64,000 bases of DNA. It comes from a virus. Where the stretch lies: the IMG/VR virus record IMGVR_UViG_3300042868_011225, positions 43,007 to 107,006 of that record; one strand, 5' to 3'. Shown here piece after piece: positions 7,601 to 62,372 of this stretch; position 1 is the stretch's first letter; each line of letters opens with the position of its first letter. A program made the translations under genes and the position numbers. Under the pieces are notes generated by a model. That model saw only the letters and a program-made list of their open reading frames with translations, was not told the DNA's origin and ran no database searches.

Positions 7601-9170
7601 TTCTGTACCAAATAGTAACACTACTACGCCAAACATATGTGGTTTTTATCCTGGAACTTATTTAATTTCGGCAACAGACGCATTAGGTACACCAATTACA
7701 GATACTATTTCAGTCAATGGGGCAACACCTTTATACTGTTATAGTTTTGTTTCTAAATTGTTAAGTATTGATACCGCAACAGATGGTGAGATAACGATAG
7801 GAAATGCTGGTGGTGGAGTCGCACCATTACGTTACACACTTAAAACTTCACAAGGTGTTACTGTTCCTGGTGTTGGTGGACCTGCTCTAGCAACGACAAA
7901 TTTGGTTTTAGGTGGGTTAGCTAGTGATTTGATTGGTTATACATTGAGAATTTACGATTCAGCAGTACCACCTGCTGAATGTATAACAACTGGTTTAACA
8001 ATAACAGGTCCTAGTGTTATAAATATTAGATACACTGGAACAAATATACATTGTGCTGGTGAAGATACTGGTGCCATTAAGTTAGAAATTAATGGTGGTG
8101 TTCCACCATATACAACAAATATTGTTGGTCCAGATGGTTATCAAAATACTAGTTTAAATTTAGCTGGTTTAGCACCAGGGTCATATACGGTAACAGTTGT
8201 TGATTCTGTTGGTTCTGCGGCAACACAAACATATTCACTAATAGAAGAAAATCCACTATTAACAATACTTAGAGCAAATGCTACTGACACCTCAAAACAA
8301 TGTGACCCATTATTCCATAATATACCTTTTGATATTACTACTGGAGGTCCTCCTGGATTTCAAGCAAATGTTCAATATAGTCTAGATGCTGGTGATACAT
8401 GGGTAGATATTCAATTATCACCAACATCTGGTGTTAGATATGTACTATCAATAGGTCAGGGATTAGTTACTACAGACGGAGTTTTAATTAGATTTTGGGT
8501 TGATAATTTCCCTCGTCCAGGTATAGACCCTTGTTATTCTGAGGAATTAGTGTATGAACTTGATGAAATAAGACTACCACCTATGATTCCTGCTGGTAAA
8601 GCATATATTATGGATGGTTTACTTACTCAATACACACCAGCACTAGAAGCTATTTATAACAACAAAAGACAATGTAATGCTAACACTGGTACTTATACGT
8701 TTAGTTTAGCTCATTTAGATATGGGCTTTACTAGCAGAGCACCTTATACTATTGATTATAAAGTAGATTCTACTGTTGCAACTACACAAACACTAACTCA
8801 TTACAATGGATTAGTAACACTTACAGGTAGTAAAGGACCTGGTGATAATAACGTTGATTTTTACGTTAGAATAACTGATAACAAAGGTTGTACGTTCCCA
8901 GCTAACGCAACAAATGCCGCAAATACATGGTATAATGCTAGGGTTGCTTTACCTGCAGCTACATTGGCCTTAACCTCAATACAAACAACAGGACCTAGTA
9001 GTGGTAATTATACACATATATTTACAGTTACTGGTGGTATAGCTCCCCTAACACTTGGTGCCAGTACTCCAATAAGTTCTGGTGTGCCACGTACAATTGT
9101 TAACAATAGTTTGGTTTATGTTAATACGGTTACCGATGCTAATGGTTGTGTAATTCAAATTATAGGATAA
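4665..9170 (+). CDS. Giant virion protein with hydrophobic segments and SprB-like repeats
   Basis: A 1501-aa protein, probably part of the baseplate or tail. Residues 1-450 are a beta-rich head starting with a prealbumin-like segment (GRVIINGGFGVPNAKVSVFIP). Residues about 455-490 form one or two very hydrophobic segments (PIFFIICLIMWILILVIFFM and beyond), unusual in a tail protein, followed by a Cys-rich stretch (residues 515-660). The C-terminal third carries several SprB-like Ig-type repeats; the clearest is near residues 1125-1195 (HCAGEDTGAIKLEINGGVPP ... LAGLAPGSYTVTVVD), and the protein ends in VTDANGCVIQI, the same repeat type. SprB repeats are known from the Flavobacterium gliding adhesin. 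Overall function is inferred from position among baseplate genes. Confidence 0.85.
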   Translation: MSKAIRIRTTPNGGDNYIKVKLEQDFDFLEILSLNINQEDVYKRFSSDYGVIVGRVIINGGFGVPNAKVSVFIPLDNIDKNDVLKRGLYPYEKINDKNSDGIRYNLLTQDSQSQNECFTSIGTFPTKREVLDNDVMLEVYCKYYKFTTTTNQAGDFMIFGVPLGNHNVHLDADISDIGIASQRPYDMISKGASISRFDSTTKFSTGTNLDKLMQVKSLDAGVNVQPFWGDKESYEIGITRLDLDLNYDITPAAIFMGSIFGDKDKHSVNKRCRPRKKLGLLDEQMTNEGTIRMIRKTLDNKIEEFNVDGSELIDDKGAWAYQVPMNLDYMVTDEEGNLILSDDPDKGIPTRARVRFNIGMTNDGGLGRLRTRARYLVPNNPKVLSEIDYEFGAKTKNTSFRDLHWNKIYTVSNYISRFQRNNVFTGALTRAATGIKDVENTGKVAFPYNRVNTENNPIFFIICLIMWILILVIFFMNYIVFPIINFFLGIVKDFFKTLCRIKIWKWRPFRFACRIADSINFVACIAVSCPFDDGYSYSPGCYSSSRGFGALCDESGCPTYYPGDSFGHGTPDCGLSDCIAFEMARTLNLFQFDFYNDWVNGSLFSYLLKYKRRKNKSEKFCESNCEDIAGGGVDGNNNGTADNKCYSSLLMDTCFRSGKDSQKNTRGIGINEGVIKKVGTEFYYAATNRSTDLRLFSTEIVNLGSVFECDWQGIPKIQKLLIPTTFKVPPDTQELTDDKTQVETTGMVDIGGNTCGNFFDINCLGLHVDPRQCVNVRHICEMGVDIDEATFSPTDNNTLTNQADCIIGKLDIDDNFGKWTRDVFYGLNQTATPWIGLTSLTIPPAGFSTDFNLQNAGDYNQTAVGPNGADYVSFRNISINNAPASDNTFGQSDHSYYFYFGLEPGSTGLDKMNKKFFAACIKPERNSIVIESNSIPDILSGGSGCINFSFIGGTGPFNYTITGLNDPQGNPLNITPQTGSVPNSNTTTPNICGFYPGTYLISATDALGTPITDTISVNGATPLYCYSFVSKLLSIDTATDGEITIGNAGGGVAPLRYTLKTSQGVTVPGVGGPALATTNLVLGGLASDLIGYTLRIYDSAVPPAECITTGLTITGPSVINIRYTGTNIHCAGEDTGAIKLEINGGVPPYTTNIVGPDGYQNTSLNLAGLAPGSYTVTVVDSVGSAATQTYSLIEENPLLTILRANATDTSKQCDPLFHNIPFDITTGGPPGFQANVQYSLDAGDTWVDIQLSPTSGVRYVLSIGQGLVTTDGVLIRFWVDNFPRPGIDPCYSEELVYELDEIRLPPMIPAGKAYIMDGLLTQYTPALEAIYNNKRQCNANTGTYTFSLAHLDMGFTSRAPYTIDYKVDSTVATTQTLTHYNGLVTLTGSKGPGDNNVDFYVRITDNKGCTFPANATNAANTWYNARVALPAATLALTSIQTTGPSSGNYTHIFTVTGGIAPLTLGASTPISSGVPRTIVNNSLVYVNTVTDANGCVIQIIG

Positions 9171-26014: not shown

Positions 26015-27223
26015 ATGGGATTTAATAACACAACACCGTCAATTAACTTAGTAGCTAAGTTAACACCTTTAGGTAGAAAAAGATTAGTTTCTACCAATAA
26101 TGCTTTAATAACATCATTTAGTCTTGGAGATTCAGATGCCAATTATAATGCAGCATTTTCTTTGAGTAGTGGAGATATTCCAGCATTGGCTGGTAATATT
26201 GGGCCAATGAATTCAATTGGTAATGGAGTTACAGATAATGTATATTTAAAAAGTTTACTTTATGTAAATAGAAATGGTATTACGAAAAAAAGTGTTGAAA
26301 AACAATCTTCAACTGTTGTAACTGAAATGATATCTAATGGTTTTACTACTGTTAGTGGTTCAAATATAACTAGGTTGGTTATTGATAGAAATACTTTTAG
26401 TACAAATAACCTAGTTAATTTATATTATTCTTTTGGATTACCTTTAAATTCAAACGCTGATAACACATATACAGCTACAACTAACACTAATGGTGGTTAT
26501 AGTGACACTGCGTTTAGCGGCTTAGCGGCTACCAACATTGCAGTTTTTGGAATTAACAATGCAACATACGGTGAAGTTATAGATGGTAAAAGTATTAAAA
26601 TGGTTGTACCAACAACAGGTGGTACTTATACGATTTATAGTACATTCCAAAATAAAAATATCCCATTAACTACTGAAGATGCTAATTATTATGATAAATC
26701 AGTTAATGCTCAAGTAATTGAAACCAACGTAGCGTTTTTATTTTCTGATGATATTAAAAAACCTAATGGTAATCCAACATCATCATGGGGAACTGGATGG
26801 AATACAAATAAACCATTTAGTCTTAACGGAAAATCATTATTTAATTTCCAAACCAATAGCAACTTGGCTCTTACGGCTGATACTATTGTTGGCGTTGCTT
26901 ATTTAGATAAAGGTATTATCGTATTAACGCACCCAACAATTATTAACAACATGGGTGTATTAAGTACTGGTGCTACAACTGCTAGTACAATAACTTTTAA
27001 TAGTGTATCAACAGATATTTATCAAAACGTTACATGTATTGCTGATAGAGGTGAATTTGGTACGTCAACAAATTCAACAATAGGTTCTACTGATAGCCCT
27101 AGAATTAGTGAAGTTGGGTTATACGATGATTTAGGTAATCTTATTGCGGTGGCTAAAACTGACCGTCATATTGTTAAAAATGTTAATGAATTTATTGCGT
27201 TAGGCATAAAAATTAGTTTATAG
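26015..27223 (+). CDS. Tail fibre/baseplate protein, shorter paralogue
   Basis: A 402-aa protein that starts one base after the preceding stop. It shares the N-terminal LTPLGR...GDSDANYN and C-terminal ISEVGLYDDLGNL elements with the 712-aa neighbour, so the two probably arose by duplication followed by divergence of the central region. It closes the structural block; the next gene encodes a resolvase. Confidence 0.83.
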   Translation: MGFNNTTPSINLVAKLTPLGRKRLVSTNNALITSFSLGDSDANYNAAFSLSSGDIPALAGNIGPMNSIGNGVTDNVYLKSLLYVNRNGITKKSVEKQSSTVVTEMISNGFTTVSGSNITRLVIDRNTFSTNNLVNLYYSFGLPLNSNADNTYTATTNTNGGYSDTAFSGLAATNIAVFGINNATYGEVIDGKSIKMVVPTTGGTYTIYSTFQNKNIPLTTEDANYYDKSVNAQVIETNVAFLFSDDIKKPNGNPTSSWGTGWNTNKPFSLNGKSLFNFQTNSNLALTADTIVGVAYLDKGIIVLTHPTIINNMGVLSTGATTASTITFNSVSTDIYQNVTCIADRGEFGTSTNSTIGSTDSPRISEVGLYDDLGNLIAVAKTDRHIVKNVNEFIALGIKISL

Positions 27224-47455: not shown

Positions 47456-48895
47456 ATGAAAAATTCATTATTATCTGCTATGCAAACAAAAGATTCACAA
47501 ACTGAAAACGGTATGGTTACTAACTCGTCATCATTAAACCACTGTGTAGATTTATTCTTCCAGATTGGAGCAATGAGAGGAGCTGACAAAACTCGTCTTA
47601 TAAATGTGTTTACGAAAGCATTTGGAGAAAATCCATTGACTGCCATGCGTTTATTATTTTGGGCGAGAGATGTACGTGGTGGTGCTGGTGAAAGACAAAT
47701 CTTTAAAGATATTATTTCTTACTTGGCTGAAAACCGTACAGAAACTCTTGGTAAAAACTTACACCTTATTTCAGAGTTCGGTAGATGGGATGATATGTTA
47801 GTATTGTTCGGTACTCCATTGGAGAGCCAAGCATTAGCATTAATCACTGAAGCTTTGAACGCTAAAAATGGTTTAACAGCAAAATGGATGCCACGTCCAA
47901 ACGTAGCAAACCGTGATGCTAAAAGACAAGCCAACACGCTTAGAAAACACTTAGGTTTATCTCCAAAGGATTACCGTAAGTTACTTGTTGAAAACTCTAA
48001 CACAGTTGAGCAATTGATGTGTGCTAGAGAATGGTCTAAAATTGAATACTCTAAATTGCCTTCAAAAGCAATGAGTGATTTGATGAAAGCCTTTTCTAAA
48101 AACGACTTAGCTCGTTTCCAAGAATACTTGGGAAGTGTTGAAAAAGGTGAGGCTAAAATCAATGCTGGTGCTTTGTACCCATATGATGTCATCAAAAACC
48201 TTAACCAAAACAACGTGAAAGGGGCTAACGCTCAATGGAACGCATTGCCAAACTTCTTGGAGTCTAACAATGAAAGATTCCTTCCAGTTGTTGACGTTTC
48301 TGGTTCAATGTCATGTCCTGCAGGGACATCACAAACCGTTACTTGTATGGATGTAGCAATCTCATTGGGATTATACATTTCTGAAAGAAACGTAGGTGCA
48401 TTTCAAGATGCATTTATTACTTTCTCGAACAATCCACAATTACAAATCCTTAAAGGTTCTCTTTCTGAAAGATACAATCAATTGCAAAGAGCTGCATGGG
48501 ATATGTCAACCAACGTTGAAGCGGTATTCAAGTTAATCTTGAAAAAAGCTGTGGACAACAATGTTCAAGAAAGTGAAATGCCAACAATGATTCTTATCCT
48601 TTCGGATATGGAATTCAATGCTGGTACTAGAGGAAATTGGAACTCTACTGCTCAAGAAATGTTCGAAAGAATGTACGCTGAAGCAGGTTATGTGATGCCA
48701 AAAATTGTTTACTGGAATATCCATTCTAGAAGCGACTCTAACAAACCAGTTCAATTCGACAAGAATGGGACTGCGTTGGTGTCTGGATTCTCACCTTCAT
48801 TACTAACTAACTTGTTAGGTGGTAAAGAAATGACTCCATACTCAATGATGATGAATGTAATCGATTCAGAGCGTTACGCTGCGATTACAGTTTAA
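47456..48895 (+). CDS. Ro60-like protein: DUF2828/TROVE-type helical repeats plus vWA domain
   Basis: A 479-aa protein. Residues 35-270 match the DUF2828/TROVE-like helical region: LLFWARDVRGGAGERQIFKD, LISEFGRWDDMLVLFG, a KWMPR segment, YRKLL, CAREWSKIEYSKLPSKAM and NAGALYPYDVI. Residues about 275-470 form a von Willebrand A domain with an intact MIDAS start, VVDVSGSMS, and a later SDMEF. Ro60 and bacterial Rsr share this ring-plus-vWA plan and bind misfolded RNA and small Y RNAs. The gene has its own promoter and is followed by a structured non-coding stretch. RNA binding is inferred from the family. Confidence 0.85.
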   Translation: MKNSLLSAMQTKDSQTENGMVTNSSSLNHCVDLFFQIGAMRGADKTRLINVFTKAFGENPLTAMRLLFWARDVRGGAGERQIFKDIISYLAENRTETLGKNLHLISEFGRWDDMLVLFGTPLESQALALITEALNAKNGLTAKWMPRPNVANRDAKRQANTLRKHLGLSPKDYRKLLVENSNTVEQLMCAREWSKIEYSKLPSKAMSDLMKAFSKNDLARFQEYLGSVEKGEAKINAGALYPYDVIKNLNQNNVKGANAQWNALPNFLESNNERFLPVVDVSGSMSCPAGTSQTVTCMDVAISLGLYISERNVGAFQDAFITFSNNPQLQILKGSLSERYNQLQRAAWDMSTNVEAVFKLILKKAVDNNVQESEMPTMILILSDMEFNAGTRGNWNSTAQEMFERMYAEAGYVMPKIVYWNIHSRSDSNKPVQFDKNGTALVSGFSPSLLTNLLGGKEMTPYSMMMNVIDSERYAAITV

Positions 48896-48975
48896 AAAAT
48901 AGTAGGTGCGTGGGCGTGTGTATACGAGTCCATGGTAAATGTGTCAAGACAGCCTGTTATAATATATTTGTTCAA

Positions 48976-49113
48976 AAAGATAAGTGCTGCAACCAAACAC
49001 ACAAAAACAATTATCTAACTTAAGCAACGTAGGAACCCAATCCTCTAACAATTTTATTTAATGGGAAAACTTCTCAACAGGGTTATTGAAGTAAATGCCC
49101 CCCTATCTTGGAA
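48976..49113 (+). ncRNA. Candidate structured RNA next to the Ro60-like gene
   Basis: A 317-base gap without a credible gene (48896-49212). Within it AAGATA (about 48978) can pair with TATCTT (about 49104) to close a 130-base domain. Inside are AGGA/TCCT at about 49031-49044, and a compound stem near 49061-49100 with GGG/CCC, ACTTC/GAAGT and AAC/GTT helices in series. A terminator with a GAAA loop follows. A TATATTTG -7-like element at 48963-48970 could start it, but its -33 element is poor. By position it could be a Y-RNA-like partner; sequence identity with any known RNA is not claimed. Confidence 0.45.
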
Positions 49114-49125
49114 CAAAGAAAAAAG

Positions 49126-49152
49126 AAACTCACAGAAATGTGGGTTTTTTTC
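49126..49152 (+). terminator. Intrinsic terminator with GAAA tetraloop
   Basis: ACTCACA-GAAA-TGTGGGT hairpin (one G-T pair) followed by a T-run. Confidence 0.9.
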
Positions 49153-54074: not shown

Positions 54075-54447
54075 GGGGATAAACGGTATCGACAGGGTAT
54101 GGTCGTAGATTGTAAGCATGTAGTGCTAGATTGGAAGCACTTTAATCTGTCTATTAAAAGATTGAATTGACAACGTATTTAACGTATCAGAAAATTTCTT
54201 GAACGAAGCATCAGTGTTTTCAACAAGAGAGTTAGCTGCAGCCTAAATGAAGCAAATGGTGGTAATCCACTTGATGGTGATAAATCACTAGAACCCACTT
54301 TCGTATGAGTGGTTAAGTCGGATACGGGTCATTATAGATATGGGACCAGCACTATCTTGAAAGATTGCCAGTTAAATGAATTGGATAAACATGTAGAAAG
54401 CCTTTTGTGAATGCTTTTGGACAGGGGTTCGACTCCCCTTATCTCCA
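54075..54447 (+). ncRNA. ssrA: tmRNA (transfer-messenger RNA)
   Basis: A 373-base tmRNA for rescue of stalled ribosomes and tagging of unfinished proteins. The 5' end GGGGATAAACGGTATCGACA and 3' end match the tmRNA tRNA-like domain. GGGGATA (54075-54081) pairs with TATCTCC (54440-54446), the discriminator is A54447, and the T-arm is AGGGG-TTCGACT-CCCCT. An internal reading frame ends GAG TTA GCT GCA GCC TAA (stop at 54244-54246), giving a tag that ends STRELAAA; the resume codon is not certain (GCA at 54208 would give ASVFSTRELAAA). CCA is not encoded. The hydrophobic LAAA end suits ClpXP-type recognition. Confidence 0.93.
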
Positions 54448-54493
54448 CTCGTAATGATTCTGCTCAACAATAACCTTTGAGACAGAAATAACA

Positions 54494-54986: not shown

Positions 54987-55320
54987 AATTAATAAAAACA
55001 CGTTCATACACATATTAAAAAATATCTAAAAAGATGGTTTCTGCAAAAGAAACTAAAACAAACTAAATCAGATGAAGGAGTAAGGGTCTCCAGAGTTGTT
55101 CTTGAACCACATTGAAATAGCATGAGTTCATACATCCAACACGAAAGTGGCAAAATCCCAGATGTTGTGAGGGCATTTAAAATACTACTACCATGTACAC
55201 GCTAGTCAAGGAAAATAAAAGCGAACCACCATCTTGAGATACACATATTGACAAAAGAATCCGTTCAGCAATCAAACAACACTTTATTATGGAAAAACAA
55301 AGTGATTCTGGTCAACAATA
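54987..55320 (+). ncRNA. Transcribed region without a credible gene, possible leader or stable RNA
   Basis: More than 330 bases between a strong promoter and a tRNA-like sequence. It contains a ten-codon ORF (MVSAKETKTN, 55034-55066) and otherwise only stop-rich frames. Base composition is less AT-rich than nearby spacers. Local complementarity exists but I could not settle on a fold. It may be a long RNA leader, a stable RNA, or the remains of a gene. Confidence 0.35.
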
Positions 55321-55392
55321 TTATCGTGAGCACTAGGGAAGTGCGGCATCCATTGGGGGTGTTGGAAAAAGGTTCGAGTCCTTTACGATAGT
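55321..55392 (+). tRNA. tRNA-like RNA, possible tRNA-Gln(UUG) with non-standard anticodon loop
   Basis: A 72-base cloverleaf: acceptor TTATCGT / ACGATAG (seven pairs, one G-U), D stem GCAC/GTGC, anticodon stem GCATC/GGTGT (two G-U), T-arm AAAGG-TTCGAGT-CCTTT. The anticodon loop is CATTGGG, which would place UUG at 34-36 but with A instead of the universal U at position 33; U8 and A14 are also changed. It may be a decayed tRNA, or a tRNA-shaped RNA with another use. CCA is not encoded. Confidence 0.5.
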
Positions 55393-55409
55393 CTAATAAA
55401 ATTAAAAAC

Positions 55410-55727
55410 ATGTATAAAAACATTGAAGATAGACGAAGATGTGATGCAATTAGTAGACAAAAAAGAGTTGCAAAACAAAGAAAAGAAATCTTAGAGTTTT
55501 TAGGTGGTAAATGCATAGAATGTGGTTTTAATGATGATAGAGCATTAGCTATCGACCATAAATTTGGTGGTGGTACTAAAGAAAGGAAAGATATAGGCGG
55601 TGCTTATTATTCACATGTTCTAAAAAAATTAAAAGCAGGTACTGATGAATACCAAGTTCTTTGTTGTAATTGCAATCAAATTAAAAAGATTGTAAATAAT
55701 GAAGAAAGACTAAAAATACATAATTAA
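55410..55727 (+). CDS. HNH-type endonuclease-like protein
   Basis: A 105-aa protein with the small HNH layout: basic N-terminal helix (about residues 1-30), CIEC zinc pair (about 36-39), ALAIDHKFGGG (about 46-56, the DH of the metal site), and QVLCCNCNQIKK (about 84-95, second zinc pair and the N of HNH). Such proteins nick or cut DNA and often move as free-standing homing genes in phages; one placed between a tRNA-like gene and a tRNA gene fits that habit. Confidence 0.82.
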   Translation: MYKNIEDRRRCDAISRQKRVAKQRKEILEFLGGKCIECGFNDDRALAIDHKFGGGTKERKDIGGAYYSHVLKKLKAGTDEYQVLCCNCNQIKKIVNNEERLKIHN

Positions 55728-55734
55728 AATATAA

Positions 55735-55806
55735 TGCGGAGTAGAGCAGTGGTTAGCTCGCAAGGCTCATAACCTTGAGGTCGGGGGTTCGATTCCTTCC
55801 TCCGCT
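55735..55806 (+). tRNA. tRNA with CAU anticodon (Met, or Ile-AUA after lysidine modification)
   Basis: A 72-base tRNA: acceptor TGCGGAG / CTCCGCT (six pairs with a T-T mismatch at 1-72), D stem GAGC/GCTC, anticodon arm CAAGG-CTCATAA-CCTTG, T-arm GGGGG-TTCGATT-CCTTC (two G-U). Discriminator A, CCA not encoded. The anticodon stem lacks the three G-C pairs of initiator tRNA, so it is an elongator Met or an Ile2 tRNA. ATA codons are frequent in this AT-rich phage, which would favour Ile2; sequence alone does not decide. Confidence 0.9.
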
Positions 55807-55821
55807 ACTAATTTTATTAGC

Positions 55822-55843
55822 AAACCCCCAATTTGGCGGTTTT
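55822..55843 (+). terminator. Terminator or processing hairpin after the tRNA
   Basis: AAACC-C-CCA-ATT-TGG-C-GGTTT hairpin with one C-C mismatch, followed by TT. Confidence 0.6.
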
Positions 55844-55955
55844 AATTCCCATGAAACGGCATGGTGCTGGTAAAAGAAATAAAGAATAGTTACAGCAAGT
55901 TAAAAAACTTTTAAATCTGAAAATTAAAACCAAACATGCTATTCTGAAACTTAAG

Positions 55956-56012: not shown

Positions 56013-56694
56013 ATGGGACAAAAGATTCATTTAGAAATCCGTGATGCGGAAGGTGGAACAGATGCAAAGCTGTTGGTGGAACAGATGTTAGACATCTACA
56101 CCAAGACGGCAAGAATTAACAATTTAGAATGTAGCATAGTCGAAGAAAGAAGCGGCTTCGCCCATCTATGTCTTTAGCGGCCCAAAGGTAAAAGAGATAT
56201 TCCAGAATGAAGTAGGAAATCATCGTTGGCAAAGGGTCCCACCAACTGAAAAGAAGGGACGTGTTCACACCAGTTCAATTACCGTAGCAATAATGGAAGA
56301 AAACGATTATAAAGAGGTAGAATTATACCCTAACGAATATCGTTTAGAAACAACCAGAGGCACGGGAAATGGTGGCCAGCATAAAAACACTACAGATTCA
56401 TGTGTAGTAGTTACACACATAGCCACAAGCATCAAAGTAGTTCGAGATGGTAGAAATCAACACAAGAACAAAGAAGATGCGTTAAAAGAGCTTACAAAGC
56501 GTGTAAACGATTATTATAGAACAGGACACTTAGAAGAAAGCGTAGAAGAGCGAAGAGACCAAATCGGCAAAGGTGATAGAAGCGACAAACGTAGAACATA
56601 TAGAGTGAAAGATTCAATAGTAGTTGACCACATAACCAACAAAACAGCATCATTGAAAGATGTGCTTAGAGGTAAAATCGAATTACTATCATAA
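56013..56694 (+). CDS. Domain-1-less RF1-class release factor, joined by a +1 frameshift
   Basis: Class I peptide release factor, about 226 aa after the shift. The zero frame (56013-56174, 54 codons, MGQKIHLEIRDAEGGTDAKL and on) ends at TAG 56175-56177; the +1 frame continues from AGC 56176 without a gap in homology: SGPKVKEIFQNEVGNHRWQR, then VPPTE, the PxT motif of RF1 that reads UAG and UAA. Next come GRVHTSSITVAI, the catalytic GGQ (GTGNGGQHKNTTDS) and GDRSDKRRTY near the end. RF1 domain 1 and the far C-terminus are missing. The junction CTT TAG C mirrors the RF2 autoregulatory site CTT TGA C. No promoter was recognised upstream. An unshifted frame starting at the ATG at 56293 would lack the PxT loop. 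Confidence 0.9.
56172..56178 (+). promoter_or_regulatory. Programmed +1 frameshift site CTT TAG C
   Basis: The P-site CTT can re-pair as TTT, and the slow A-site TAG with +4 C gives time to slip. Identical to the RF2 site except that TGA is replaced by TAG. A short GGC-TTC-GCC hairpin can form at 56153-56161. No clear Shine-Dalgarno-like stimulator (AGGGGG in E. coli prfB) is seen upstream. Confidence 0.85.
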
Positions 56695-61256: not shown

Positions 61257-62372
61257 ATGACACAGAGAGTAAAATTTAATATGCAACTACCACAAGATAT
61301 CCTTACTATTAAAGATATCTTCAAAGCTAACAGTTTCCAATTATTCGTAGTTGGTGGAGCTGTTCGTGATGCTGTGCTAGGCAAAGACCCTAAAGATTTT
61401 GACTTGGCTACCAACGCAAAACCAGACCAAGTGGAACAAATGATGCAAGATGCTGGATTTACCACACTTGCAACTGGAAAAGCTTTCGGTGTAATCAATG
61501 TATTCACTGATTCAGGTGATTTTGAAATTGCAACATTCAGAAAAGATATCGGTTCAGGTCGTAGACCAGATTCAGTAGAATTTACTACTATCGAAGGTGA
61601 CGTTTCAAGACGTGACTTAACTATCAACGCACTTTTCTTCGATATTGAAGCTGGTGAAATTGTTGACTTGGTTGGTGGACTTGAAGACCTAAGAAATGGT
61701 GTAATCAAAACCGTTGGCTCAGCCAAAGATAGATTCTCTGAAGATAGACTTCGTATCCTACGAGCAATTAGGTTTGCTGAAAGGTTTGGTAGTGATTTGG
61801 ATAATGATATTTTATGGGCTTTGAAAGAAGATTCTAGTCTTGAAGGTATAAGTCATGAAAGAATTAGAGATGAGTTCTTAAAAGGTCTTAAATCGGCTAA
61901 GTCGATAGGTGAGTTTTTATTTACTCTAGAGATTTTTCATTTATTTGATTGGATATTTCCAGATTTGATAGTTAATCATAGATTCATTATCCAAGATGAC
62001 CCGATTGTTGTTATGGCATCATTACTTAAAAGTAACGATAAAACATTCTTGCCAAAGCAATTGAACAAATTGACATACTCAACAGATGAAATCAAAGCCA
62101 TCATGTTTCTTATCTCTTTGAAAGAGTTGGATGATGATACTGCGGTTGAAATCAAGAGAAAACAAAAGAACTCAGGTGTTACAACTGACCAAATACTTAA
62201 CTTTACAACTCGTGAAGGTGTACCATCACAATTGGTGGATTCTTTCTTGGCTTTTGAGTTGAGTGTAACTGGTGATGATGTAATGAGAGAAAAAGGTTTG
62301 AAACCTGGTCCAGAATTGGGTAAAGCCATCCTAGAGATTGAAACTGAAAACTTTAAAAAGATAATAGTATAA
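61257..62372 (+). CDS. tRNA nucleotidyltransferase (CCA-adding enzyme / poly(A) polymerase family)
   Basis: A 371-aa class II nucleotidyltransferase. Marks: LFVVGGAVRDAVLG (about residues 29-42), DFDLAT (metal-binding Asp pair, about 47-52), RRPDSVEF (about 101), RRDLTINALFFD (about 119-130), and RLRILRAIRFAERFG (about 162-176) of the neck region. The family adds CCA to tRNA 3' ends or A tails to RNA. The phage tmRNA, tRNA-CAU and tRNA-like RNA in this window all lack encoded CCA, so this enzyme is a fitting partner. Short length without an HD domain is within the family's range. Confidence 0.93.
   Translation: MTQRVKFNMQLPQDILTIKDIFKANSFQLFVVGGAVRDAVLGKDPKDFDLATNAKPDQVEQMMQDAGFTTLATGKAFGVINVFTDSGDFEIATFRKDIGSGRRPDSVEFTTIEGDVSRRDLTINALFFDIEAGEIVDLVGGLEDLRNGVIKTVGSAKDRFSEDRLRILRAIRFAERFGSDLDNDILWALKEDSSLEGISHERIRDEFLKGLKSAKSIGEFLFTLEIFHLFDWIFPDLIVNHRFIIQDDPIVVMASLLKSNDKTFLPKQLNKLTYSTDEIKAIMFLISLKELDDDTAVEIKRKQKNSGVTTDQILNFTTREGVPSQLVDSFLAFELSVTGDDVMREKGLKPGPELGKAILEIETENFKKIIV

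What the first reader, a model, noticed from the sequence alone, without database searches (positions are those of the whole stretch)
47456..49152. Ro60-like protein followed by a structured, Y-RNA-like non-coding stretch
The 479-aa protein has the helical-ring plus vWA plan of Ro60/DUF2828. Bacterial Ro proteins work with small Y RNAs encoded next to them. Directly downstream, 317 bases without a gene contain a closing helix, an internal hairpin and a compound stem, then a GAAA-loop terminator. A phage Ro-Y RNA particle could guard phage RNA or steer host RNA decay.
Basis: partly seen in the sequence, partly recalled or inferred. Interest (0 to 1): 0.7.

Follow-up and report, generated by a model that had tools for sequence, protein, structure and literature searches.

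The report
Phage Ro protein with Y-like RNAs
This phage carries a relative of the Ro60 autoantigen together with four small RNAs that share one recognition module, a module that recurs near Ro or tRNA genes in very different Ro-carrying phages and looks like a puzzling RNA class of social amoebae.

Summary
The finding holds and grows. The 479-aa protein has the full Ro60 fold (predicted model: Z 18.0 to Xenopus Ro, 13.8 to Deinococcus Rsr). Folding energy of the downstream stretch is unremarkable (z -1.29), but comparison shows a real RNA, Y1 (48977-49110, outer helix 48967-49117), with a 7-bp closing stem, a conserved C[U/A]GCAA motif and a compensating pseudoknot. Y1 belongs to a wider set: 7 bp, 2 nt, NC[A/U]GCAA, variable interior, 7 bp, G. 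In 30 Ro loci this signature occurs 52 times on the Ro strand and once on the other; permuted motifs at most 4 times. The window has three more copies (55031-55946) in its tmRNA/tRNA cluster. A covariance model reaches E <= 0.01 in 18 of 19 Ro-phage records and finds nothing in five Ro-less phages. The module closes short, permuted-tRNA (YrlA-like) and pseudoknotted RNAs. The short ones resemble Dictyostelium Class I RNAs: 15 of 18 sub-threshold matches of that Rfam model fall on them. Most likely these are Y RNAs of the phage Ro protein. Binding and expression are untested.

The parts
47456..48895 (+). Ro60-fold protein (helical ring + vWA with DxSGS MIDAS), DUF2828/DUF7788, PHROG 850
48967..48973 (+). 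Y1 outer helix, 5' strand (TTTGTTC)
48977..49110 (+). Y1, Y-like RNA beside the Ro gene: 7-nt stem 48977-48983, GT, GCTGCAA 48986-48992, interior, 7-nt stem 49103-49109, G 49110; the 7th pair is an A.C mismatch in this sequence
49031..49065 (+). Y1 pseudoknot 1: AGG 49031-49033/CCT 49042-49044 and CCCA 49036-49039/TGGG 49062-49065
   Evidence: by eye for AGG/CCT in the window; the generic searches do not pick it in the window
49070..49100 (+). Y1 pseudoknot 2: CTTC 49070-49073/GAAG 49088-49091 and GGGT 49080-49083/GCCC 49097-49100
   Evidence: relatives also (whose narrower loop limit misses the window)
49111..49117 (+). Y1 outer helix, 3' strand (GAACAAA)
49128..49151 (+). GAAA-loop intrinsic terminator after Y1
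55031..55236 (+). Y2, 206-nt Y-like RNA (AAGATGG..TCTGCAA..CCATCTT G)
   Evidence: counterparts of 198-237 nt in L217, L219, L224
55256..55310 (+). Y3, mini Y-like RNA (7th pair mismatched here); matches Rfam RF01414 Dicty Class I RNA end to end, below gathering score
55883..55946 (+). Y4, mini Y-like RNA (AGAATAG TT ACAGCAA .. CTATTCT G); matches R1 (E 6.4e-4 in its record) and RF01414 below gathering score
   Evidence: not listed by the RF01414 whole-record search
54075..54448 (+). tmRNA of the same RNA cluster
55321..55393 (+). tRNA-Gln between Y3 and Y4
   Evidence: ARAGORN only; not reported by Rfam
55735..55808 (+). tRNA-Met between Y3 and Y4

Best explanation
The window encodes a phage Ro ribonucleoprotein system: a Ro60-fold protein and at least four small RNAs (Y1-Y4) that it binds. 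Each RNA is closed by the same recognition module: a stem of about 7 bp joining the two ends, 2 nt, the motif NC[A/U]GCAA on the 5' side, and a G after the 3' strand. The protein is inferred to recognise this module on the outside of its helical ring, as Ro60 and Rsr bind the end stem of Y RNAs. The interiors differ: short (Y3, Y4), pseudoknotted (Y1), long (Y2), and in other phages a circularly permuted tRNA. They would act as exchangeable adaptors that block the ring or tether it to different partners, such as PNPase or tRNA- and ribosome-handling enzymes. The setting (tmRNA, tRNAs, an RF-1/GGQ protein, a CCA-adding-type enzyme) points to RNA quality control or repair and translation rescue during infection. 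Shown here: the predicted fold, the shared module, its covariation and its link to Ro genes. Inferred: binding, expression, and the adaptor role.
For: Fold: full-length matches to Ro60/Rsr, Z 18.0 (2i91, 410 residues, 4.3 A), 17.9 (9kop), 16.6 (9l5y, Ro60 of Thermus phage phiLo), 13.8 (2nvo, Deinococcus Rsr), while single vWA domains start at 11.0; Foldseek 9kop E 6.3e-10; MIDAS residues D280, S282, S284 invariant in 29 and in 25 aligned proteins. Y1: found after the Ro gene in 33 of 49 viral loci, three more cut by a contig end and one partial; of 16 loci from a motif scan of all viral contigs 14 lie just after a Ro gene, seven of them on contigs not fetched before, and two have no Ro gene and no Y1; own-partner pairing beats 19 of 19 swaps for three helices in 20 sequences; pseudoknot 2 scores 21.45 against at most 14.69 in 12 shuffled sets. 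Module: 52 on the Ro strand against 1 on the other in 30 Ro loci (22 of 30 have one or more), the other 59 permutations of CAGCAA at most 4; spacer 2 gives 52 and other spacers at most 6; 3' base G gives 52 and other bases at most 6. Link to Ro: model R1 reaches E <= 0.01 in 18 of 19 Ro-phage records, 12 of the 13 that gave it no training sequence, in 2 of 3 further Ro phages, and finds nothing at E <= 1 in 5 of 5 Ro-less phages. Bridge to Y RNAs: module-closed RNAs contain YrlA cores (38.3 bits, E 3.5e-7; 44.7 and 43.8 bits; all below the gathering score of 69).
Against: No expression or binding data exist for this virus. Y1 and Y3 fail the strict signature (7th pair mismatched; only Y2 and Y4 pass), and Y1 has CUGCAA where most copies have CAGCAA. 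Folding energy alone is unremarkable. Window RNAs score nothing as YrlA. Several sampled bacterial YrlA-like loci carry another end motif (by eye). The generic pseudoknot-1 score is barely above shuffles (19.54 against 17.45-19.13). 12 of 49 viral loci show no Y1 after Ro (some of these have arrays upstream instead), and 8 of 30 loci show no strict signature near Ro. The most abundant noncoding RNAs reported in Listeria phage cka15 are not this array. One relative (L016/L055) has lost the 5' part of Y1, unless this is an assembly error. The 7-bp, 2-nt and G rules were read off part of the same loci on which they were then counted.
Confidence: 0.84

Rival explanations
1. Y1 is a cis-acting element in the 3' end of the Ro transcript (a stability element or a terminator/riboswitch-like control of the next small gene), not a Ro ligand.
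For: Y1 lies directly between the Ro stop codon and a terminator, and a small ORF follows in most of the loci that reach far enough.
Against: The same module closes RNAs upstream of Ro in A511, Campylobacter CPX, L040, L042-L044, in gaps of tRNA arrays and 6-7 kb downstream in the window, so a 3'-UTR role cannot explain the set.
Confidence: 0.08
2. The RNAs are a mobile or tRNA-array associated class (for example decoys of host tRNA-cleaving nucleases) that sits near Ro only because both belong to the same RNA-repair neighbourhood.
For: Many copies lie inside tRNA arrays; permuted-tRNA interiors could act as decoys, as PMC7790460 suggests for YrlA (passages seen).
Against: No R1 match in T4 and SPO1, which carry tRNA genes but no Ro gene, nor in phiKZ, lambda and T5; several arrays touch the Ro gene itself. 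Only five Ro-less phages were tested.
Confidence: 0.07
3. The pattern is chance or an AT-rich sequence artefact.
For: The single MFE z-score is weak; the bare motif is common; the strict signature also occurs 19 times in 872,263 bases of bacterial loci, both strands together.
Against: 52 against 1 by strand, 45 against at most 4 for permuted motifs, sharp spacer and 3'-base optimum; helices covary.
Confidence: 0.01

Closest known systems
Ro60 / Rsr (TROVE) proteins with Y RNAs (Xenopus, human, Deinococcus; Salmonella rsr-yrlBA)
   Same: Helical ring + vWA over the full length; RNA encoded beside the gene; RNA ends form a stem, the known Ro site (passages of PMC4726728, which give a 7-bp helix with bulges for vertebrates).
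   Different: Sequence family is DUF2828/DUF7788, not TROVE PF05731. The end module NC[A/U]GCAA was not seen by eye in the YrlA-like bacterial loci looked at. Window RNAs have no detectable tRNA-like core.
YrlA (Rfam RF02553)
   Same: In other Ro phages the module closes RNAs with a YrlA core.
   Different: All below the gathering score of 69; window RNAs do not match.
Dictyostelium Class I RNAs (Rfam RF01414)
   Same: 42-65 nt, short end stem with compensatory changes, 11-nt motif beside the 5' strand with UUACAGCAA in the Rfam consensus, start AAG and end CUGU, variable interior (passages of PMC7919456). 15 of 18 RF01414 matches in 21 phage records are loci that R1 had found.
   Different: All below the gathering score of 41.5; known only in dictyostelids according to PMC7919456; the directly binding protein named in the passages seen is the RRM protein Rnp1A/Cibp, no Ro protein.
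Ro60 of Thermus phage phiLo (PDB 9l5y) and Rsr-like CKA15_055 of Listeria phage cka15
   Same: Phage-borne Ro proteins (listing; PMC12282133). CKA15_055 was proposed to work with Y RNAs and was found in purified particles (passages of PMC12282133).
   Different: No module was described in the passages read. The abundant cka15 RNAs lie about 0.7-1.4 kb from the module array and hold no GCAA.

Membership tests
Ro60/Rsr protein family | HEAT-like helical ring plus vWA fold over the whole chain | tested here: met
   predicted model
Ro60/Rsr protein family | vWA MIDAS (DxSxS) | tested here: met
   D280, S282, S284 invariant
Ro60/Rsr protein family | Match to Pfam TROVE PF05731 | tested here: not met
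   no match in the record; hits are DUF2828 and DUF7788. So it is a Ro60-fold sister family, not a TROVE-family member by sequence
Ro60/Rsr protein family | Binds Y RNA and the 3' ends of misfolded RNA | not testable with these tools
   needs binding assays
Y RNA (general) | 5' and 3' ends pair into a stem that serves as Ro site | tested here: met
   stem present and covarying; its role as Ro site is inferred, not tested
Y RNA (general) | Encoded close to a Ro gene | tested here: met
   Y1 directly downstream; Y2-Y4 6-7 kb downstream; 33 of 49 viral Ro loci have Y1 after Ro
Y RNA (general) | Stable small transcript bound by Ro | not testable with these tools
   no RNA data for this virus
Bacterial YrlA (RF02553) | Permuted tRNA-like core, Rfam score 69 or more | tested here: not met
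   no match in the window
Dictyostelium Class I RNA (RF01414) | Rfam gathering score 41.5 | tested here: not met
   Y4 25.5, Y3 24.6 bits; best phage copy 37.1 bits
Dictyostelium Class I RNA (RF01414) | End stem + UUACAGCAA-type motif + CUG 3' end + variable interior | tested here: met
   Y4 and relatives; Y3 has UUCAGCAA

The most novel reading that the evidence does not exclude
Phage mini-Y RNAs, module-closed YrlA-like and pseudoknotted RNAs, and the Class I RNAs of social amoebae are one Y RNA superfamily served by the DUF2828/DUF7788 branch of Ro60. The module 7 bp - 2(3) nt - NC[A/U]GCAA - ... - G would be its universal recognition code, phage tRNA arrays would be mixed tRNA/Y-RNA arrays, and the missing main partner of Dictyostelium Class I RNAs would be a DUF2828-type Ro protein.
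Probability: 0.45. Interest if true: 0.95.

Novelty: new variant of a known kind. Interest (0 to 1): 0.87.

Why it matters
Relatives of this Ro protein were found by tblastn in 682 of 50,697 phage records, and I found no report of what they bind. A crisp, testable recognition module gives each of these phages a predicted set of RNA partners, explains part of the unannotated gaps in phage tRNA arrays, and gives a concrete lead on Dictyostelium Class I RNAs, an abundant class linked to development but, as far as I know, without a known mechanism. It also makes Y RNA interiors comparable across many phages, so that the adaptor idea can be tested.

Tried and rejected
Single-sequence folding of the stretch: not informative. 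Rfam at gathering level for the window: only tmRNA and a tRNA; for the stretch at E up to 10: only weak matches below cut-off that I take as chance. YrlA model in the virus record: nothing; 7 of 14 control genomes ring below cut-off, so weak YrlA scores in whole genomes mean little. T4 stable RNAs C and D as possible Y RNAs: no C[N]GCAA in them, and R1 finds nothing in T4. The abundant cka15 RNAs (CKA15_059-061; region 26,236-26,727) as Y RNAs of this class: no GCAA in that stretch, so not supported. Generic pseudoknot search for pseudoknot 1: barely above shuffles, replaced by the partner-swap test. Bare motif count in whole genomes: uninformative, present in 17 of 17 records with or without Ro. 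A window pattern with a wrong number of N gave 0 matches and says nothing. RF01414 in whole records gave three matches outside R1 loci, one of them in Ro-less T4 (E 0.0024), missed Y4, and rings in 4 of 14 control genomes. Weak spot: the L035 group (Ro 60%), where a diverged RNA may follow Ro but does not fit the module.

Dropped before counts: one search used 30 loci chosen by me, about one per lineage, out of the window and those fetched by Ro similarity; searches used 20 of the 30 distinct Y1 sequences parsed; A3 holds the 9 mini-Ys that MAFFT aligned without breaking the 3' stem, after trials with 19 and 13. In one search the next best permutation (CAGCAAA, 19) overlaps the same sites. One search counts are on an alignment fitted to the model. 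One search leaves out L034 and L045, whose contigs end in or near the gene.

Full report
What was checked. The window is bases 43007-107006 of a 107,006-base virus record. The 479-aa ORF and the gene-free 317 bases after it are as described. The protein is DUF2828 + DUF7788 in Pfam and PHROG 850, 'RNA-binding protein'; it does not match the TROVE model.

The protein is a Ro60 by fold. A model built on an alignment of 25 sequences (mean pLDDT 77.7, pTM 0.70) has one Foldseek match below E 0.001 in the PDB, a TROVE protein (9kop, E 6.3e-10). VIA-align, a second look at Foldseek's own matches, ranks ten Ro60/TROVE entries first: Xenopus Ro with misfolded RNA Z 18.0 over 410 residues, Thermus phage phiLo Ro60 16.6, Deinococcus Rsr 13.8, then single vWA domains from 11.0 down. 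A profile of 29 sequences also picks TROVE chains first in the PDB by sequence, weakly (E 0.0015); the single sequence finds none. The metal-site residues of the vWA domain are invariant.

The RNA beside it. Energy folding alone gives no signal. The sequences after the Ro gene in viral relatives (51 loci) do. In 33 of the 49 loci examined there follows a conserved RNA, here Y1; three more are cut by a contig end, one is partial and 12 show none. Its parts are an outer helix of free sequence, a 7-bp stem, C[U/A]GCAA, an A-rich stretch and two pseudoknots. A scan of all viral contigs with a pattern from the second pseudoknot gave 16 loci; 14 lie directly after a Ro gene, one of these (L055) with the 3' part of Y1 only, and seven of the 14 are on contigs that the protein search had not fetched; the other two have neither Ro nor Y1. 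In 20 sequences, each helix pairs better with its own partner than with that of other sequences in all 19 cyclic swaps: outer helix 18.1 against at most 12.1, pseudoknot-1 helix 15.6 against at most 13.2, 7-bp stem 14.0 against at most 11.8. Pseudoknot 2 scores 21.45 against at most 14.69 in shuffled sets; the same generic search for pseudoknot 1 is barely above shuffles.

A module shared by unrelated phages. Noncoding gaps next to Ro genes in Listeria, Campylobacter, Mycobacterium, Staphylococcus, Enterococcus and E. coli phages hold copies of CAGCAA flanked by a stem. In 21 loci, ACAGCAA with a stem occurs 24 times, 23 on the Ro strand; the median over all 105 permutations of this 7-mer is 3. 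The refined signature, 7 bp - 2 nt - NC[A/U]GCAA - ... - 7 bp - G, occurs 52 times on the Ro strand and once on the other in 30 Ro loci (326,645 bases), in 22 of 30 loci; of 60 permutations of CAGCAA the true one has 45 and the next 4; a spacer other than 2 gives at most 6, a 3' base other than G at most 6. The spacer and G rules came from part of these loci, so the size of the contrast matters more than its exact value; a few of the 52 may be chance. For comparison, 118 bacterial loci (872,263 bases) gave 19 on both strands together, not examined further.

Arrays. Examples: A511 three copies just upstream of Ro, Staphylococcus phage 6ec three just downstream, Whirlwind three downstream, CPX two upstream, VpaE1 four in its tRNA array, L042 four just upstream. 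Cronobacter phage GAP32 has eight strict copies in a stretch with tRNA genes, far from its Ro gene. Interiors fall into short, permuted-tRNA and complex kinds. The middle Whirlwind RNA holds a YrlA core (38.3 bits, E 3.5e-7, below the gathering score). Five more YrlA matches below the gathering score appeared in twelve further loci, four of them overlapping signature-bearing RNAs. This is the bridge from the module to Y RNAs, in which Rsr is reported to bind the lower stem (passages of PMC4726728).

The window itself has three more. A looser scan of the window gave Y2 (55031-55236), Y3 (55256-55310) and Y4 (55883-55946), around tRNA-Gln and tRNA-Met and after a tmRNA; its seven other hits lie elsewhere and I take them as chance. 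Several relatives keep counterparts of Y2-Y4. Nearby genes include an RF-1/GGQ-domain protein, a CCA-adding-type enzyme, ClpP and DnaJ.

Covariance model and controls. R1 was built from nine mini-Ys of six phages. In whole records it has a match at E <= 1 in 19 of 19 Ro phages and at E <= 0.01 in 18 of 19, and in 12 of the 13 that gave no sequence to it, for example GAP32 4.4e-6 and KVP40 2.4e-5; among three further Ro phages two reach it (2.6e-4, 2.4e-5) and Lak-B9 does not (0.13), while T4, phiKZ, SPO1, lambda and T5, which lack Ro, have no match at E <= 1. Of 29 records of closer relatives 25 have a match at E <= 0.5 and 19 at E <= 0.01; many are fragments. In 55 matches (54 distinct) the stem is paired in 98.7% of cells, with a covariation score of 1.008 against 0.235 shuffled and at most 0.152 when slid; that alignment was fitted to the model.

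Dictyostelium. Y4 and Y3 match Rfam RF01414, Class I RNA of Dictyostelium, from end to end at 25.5 and 24.6 bits, below the gathering score of 41.5. The Rfam consensus carries UUACAGCAA beside the 5' stem strand and ends in CUG. Searched over 21 phage records, RF01414 gave 18 matches at E <= 0.1 (best 5.9e-6); 15 lie on loci that R1 had found, three do not, one of these in Ro-less T4; 9 of 16 Ro phages and 1 of 5 Ro-less ones have a match; none passes the cut-off; Y4 was not listed there; 4 of 14 control genomes ring. All four RF01414 matches lie on mini-Ys. PMC7919456 (passages) describes Class I RNAs as 42-65 nt with a 6-bp end stem that keeps pairing through compensatory changes, an 11-nt motif, AAG start, CUGU end and a variable middle, says no other organism had them, and names the RRM protein Rnp1A as a direct binder. 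That DUF2828/DUF7788-type proteins occur in dictyostelids and plants is my recollection and comes from no call.

How it most likely works. The protein would hold the RNAs by the end module, and the interior would decide what the particle is joined to or kept from. In Deinococcus a Y RNA ties Rsr to PNPase and gates substrates (passages of PMC4726728). Here the setting suggests RNA repair, tRNA or rRNA quality control and ribosome rescue. PMC12282133 reports the Rsr-like protein of phage cka15 in purified particles with 57.1% sequence coverage (passages), so delivery with the particle is possible. The steps from binding onward are inference.

What is known in print. The idea that a phage Rsr works with Y RNAs is in print (PMC12282133, passages and section 8), as are Ro-like proteins in jumbo phages (PMC7824862, passages) and mycobacteriophages (PMC12363180, passages); PMC12282133 credits Y RNAs of mycobacteriophages to Chen et al. 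2014, which is not held. I found no paper that describes the shared module, its arrays or the link to Class I RNAs in ten searches, going by listings and the passages named; the library holds open-licence papers only, so this is not proof of absence.

Noticed in passing
L070 3963-4002 (KVP40) and L255 about 260-302: A module-like hairpin (GACATT..ACAGCAA..AATGTC) overlaps the start codon of the Ro gene itself in KVP40 and, by eye, Vibrio phage 1.081.O, not in D480 (L256): possible self-control of Ro translation.
   Followed up: partly
window 56293-56694 and 61257-62372: RF-1 domain protein with a GGQ motif and a CCA-adding/poly(A)-polymerase head protein in the same virus, near tmRNA and ClpP: a translation-rescue and RNA-repair neighbourhood.
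   Followed up: partly
window 48899-48959 and L037 downstream of Ro: A hairpin region before Y1 shares 20 identical bases (GTAAATGTGTCAAGACAGCC) with L037 but not with five other relatives.
   Followed up: no
L016 5446-5480 and L055: In this relative the Ro stop runs straight into the 3' part of Y1; the 5' part is missing, between short similar sequences, by deletion or assembly error.
   Followed up: partly
L213 1027-1337 (cka15 26388-26698): Highly transcribed noncoding stretch reported in PMC12282133; it lacks the module and looks like a different RNA.
   Followed up: partly
L126 5027-5111 and 5693-5893 (+); L178 minus strand 7670-7735: A few bacterial contigs show signature-like hits; L126 also holds tRNA-like pattern hits. 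They may be prophage copies or chance.
   Followed up: no
L051 691-797: Rfam 'drum' RNA (75.8 bits) in the same tRNA-rich phage region as three mini-Ys.
   Followed up: no
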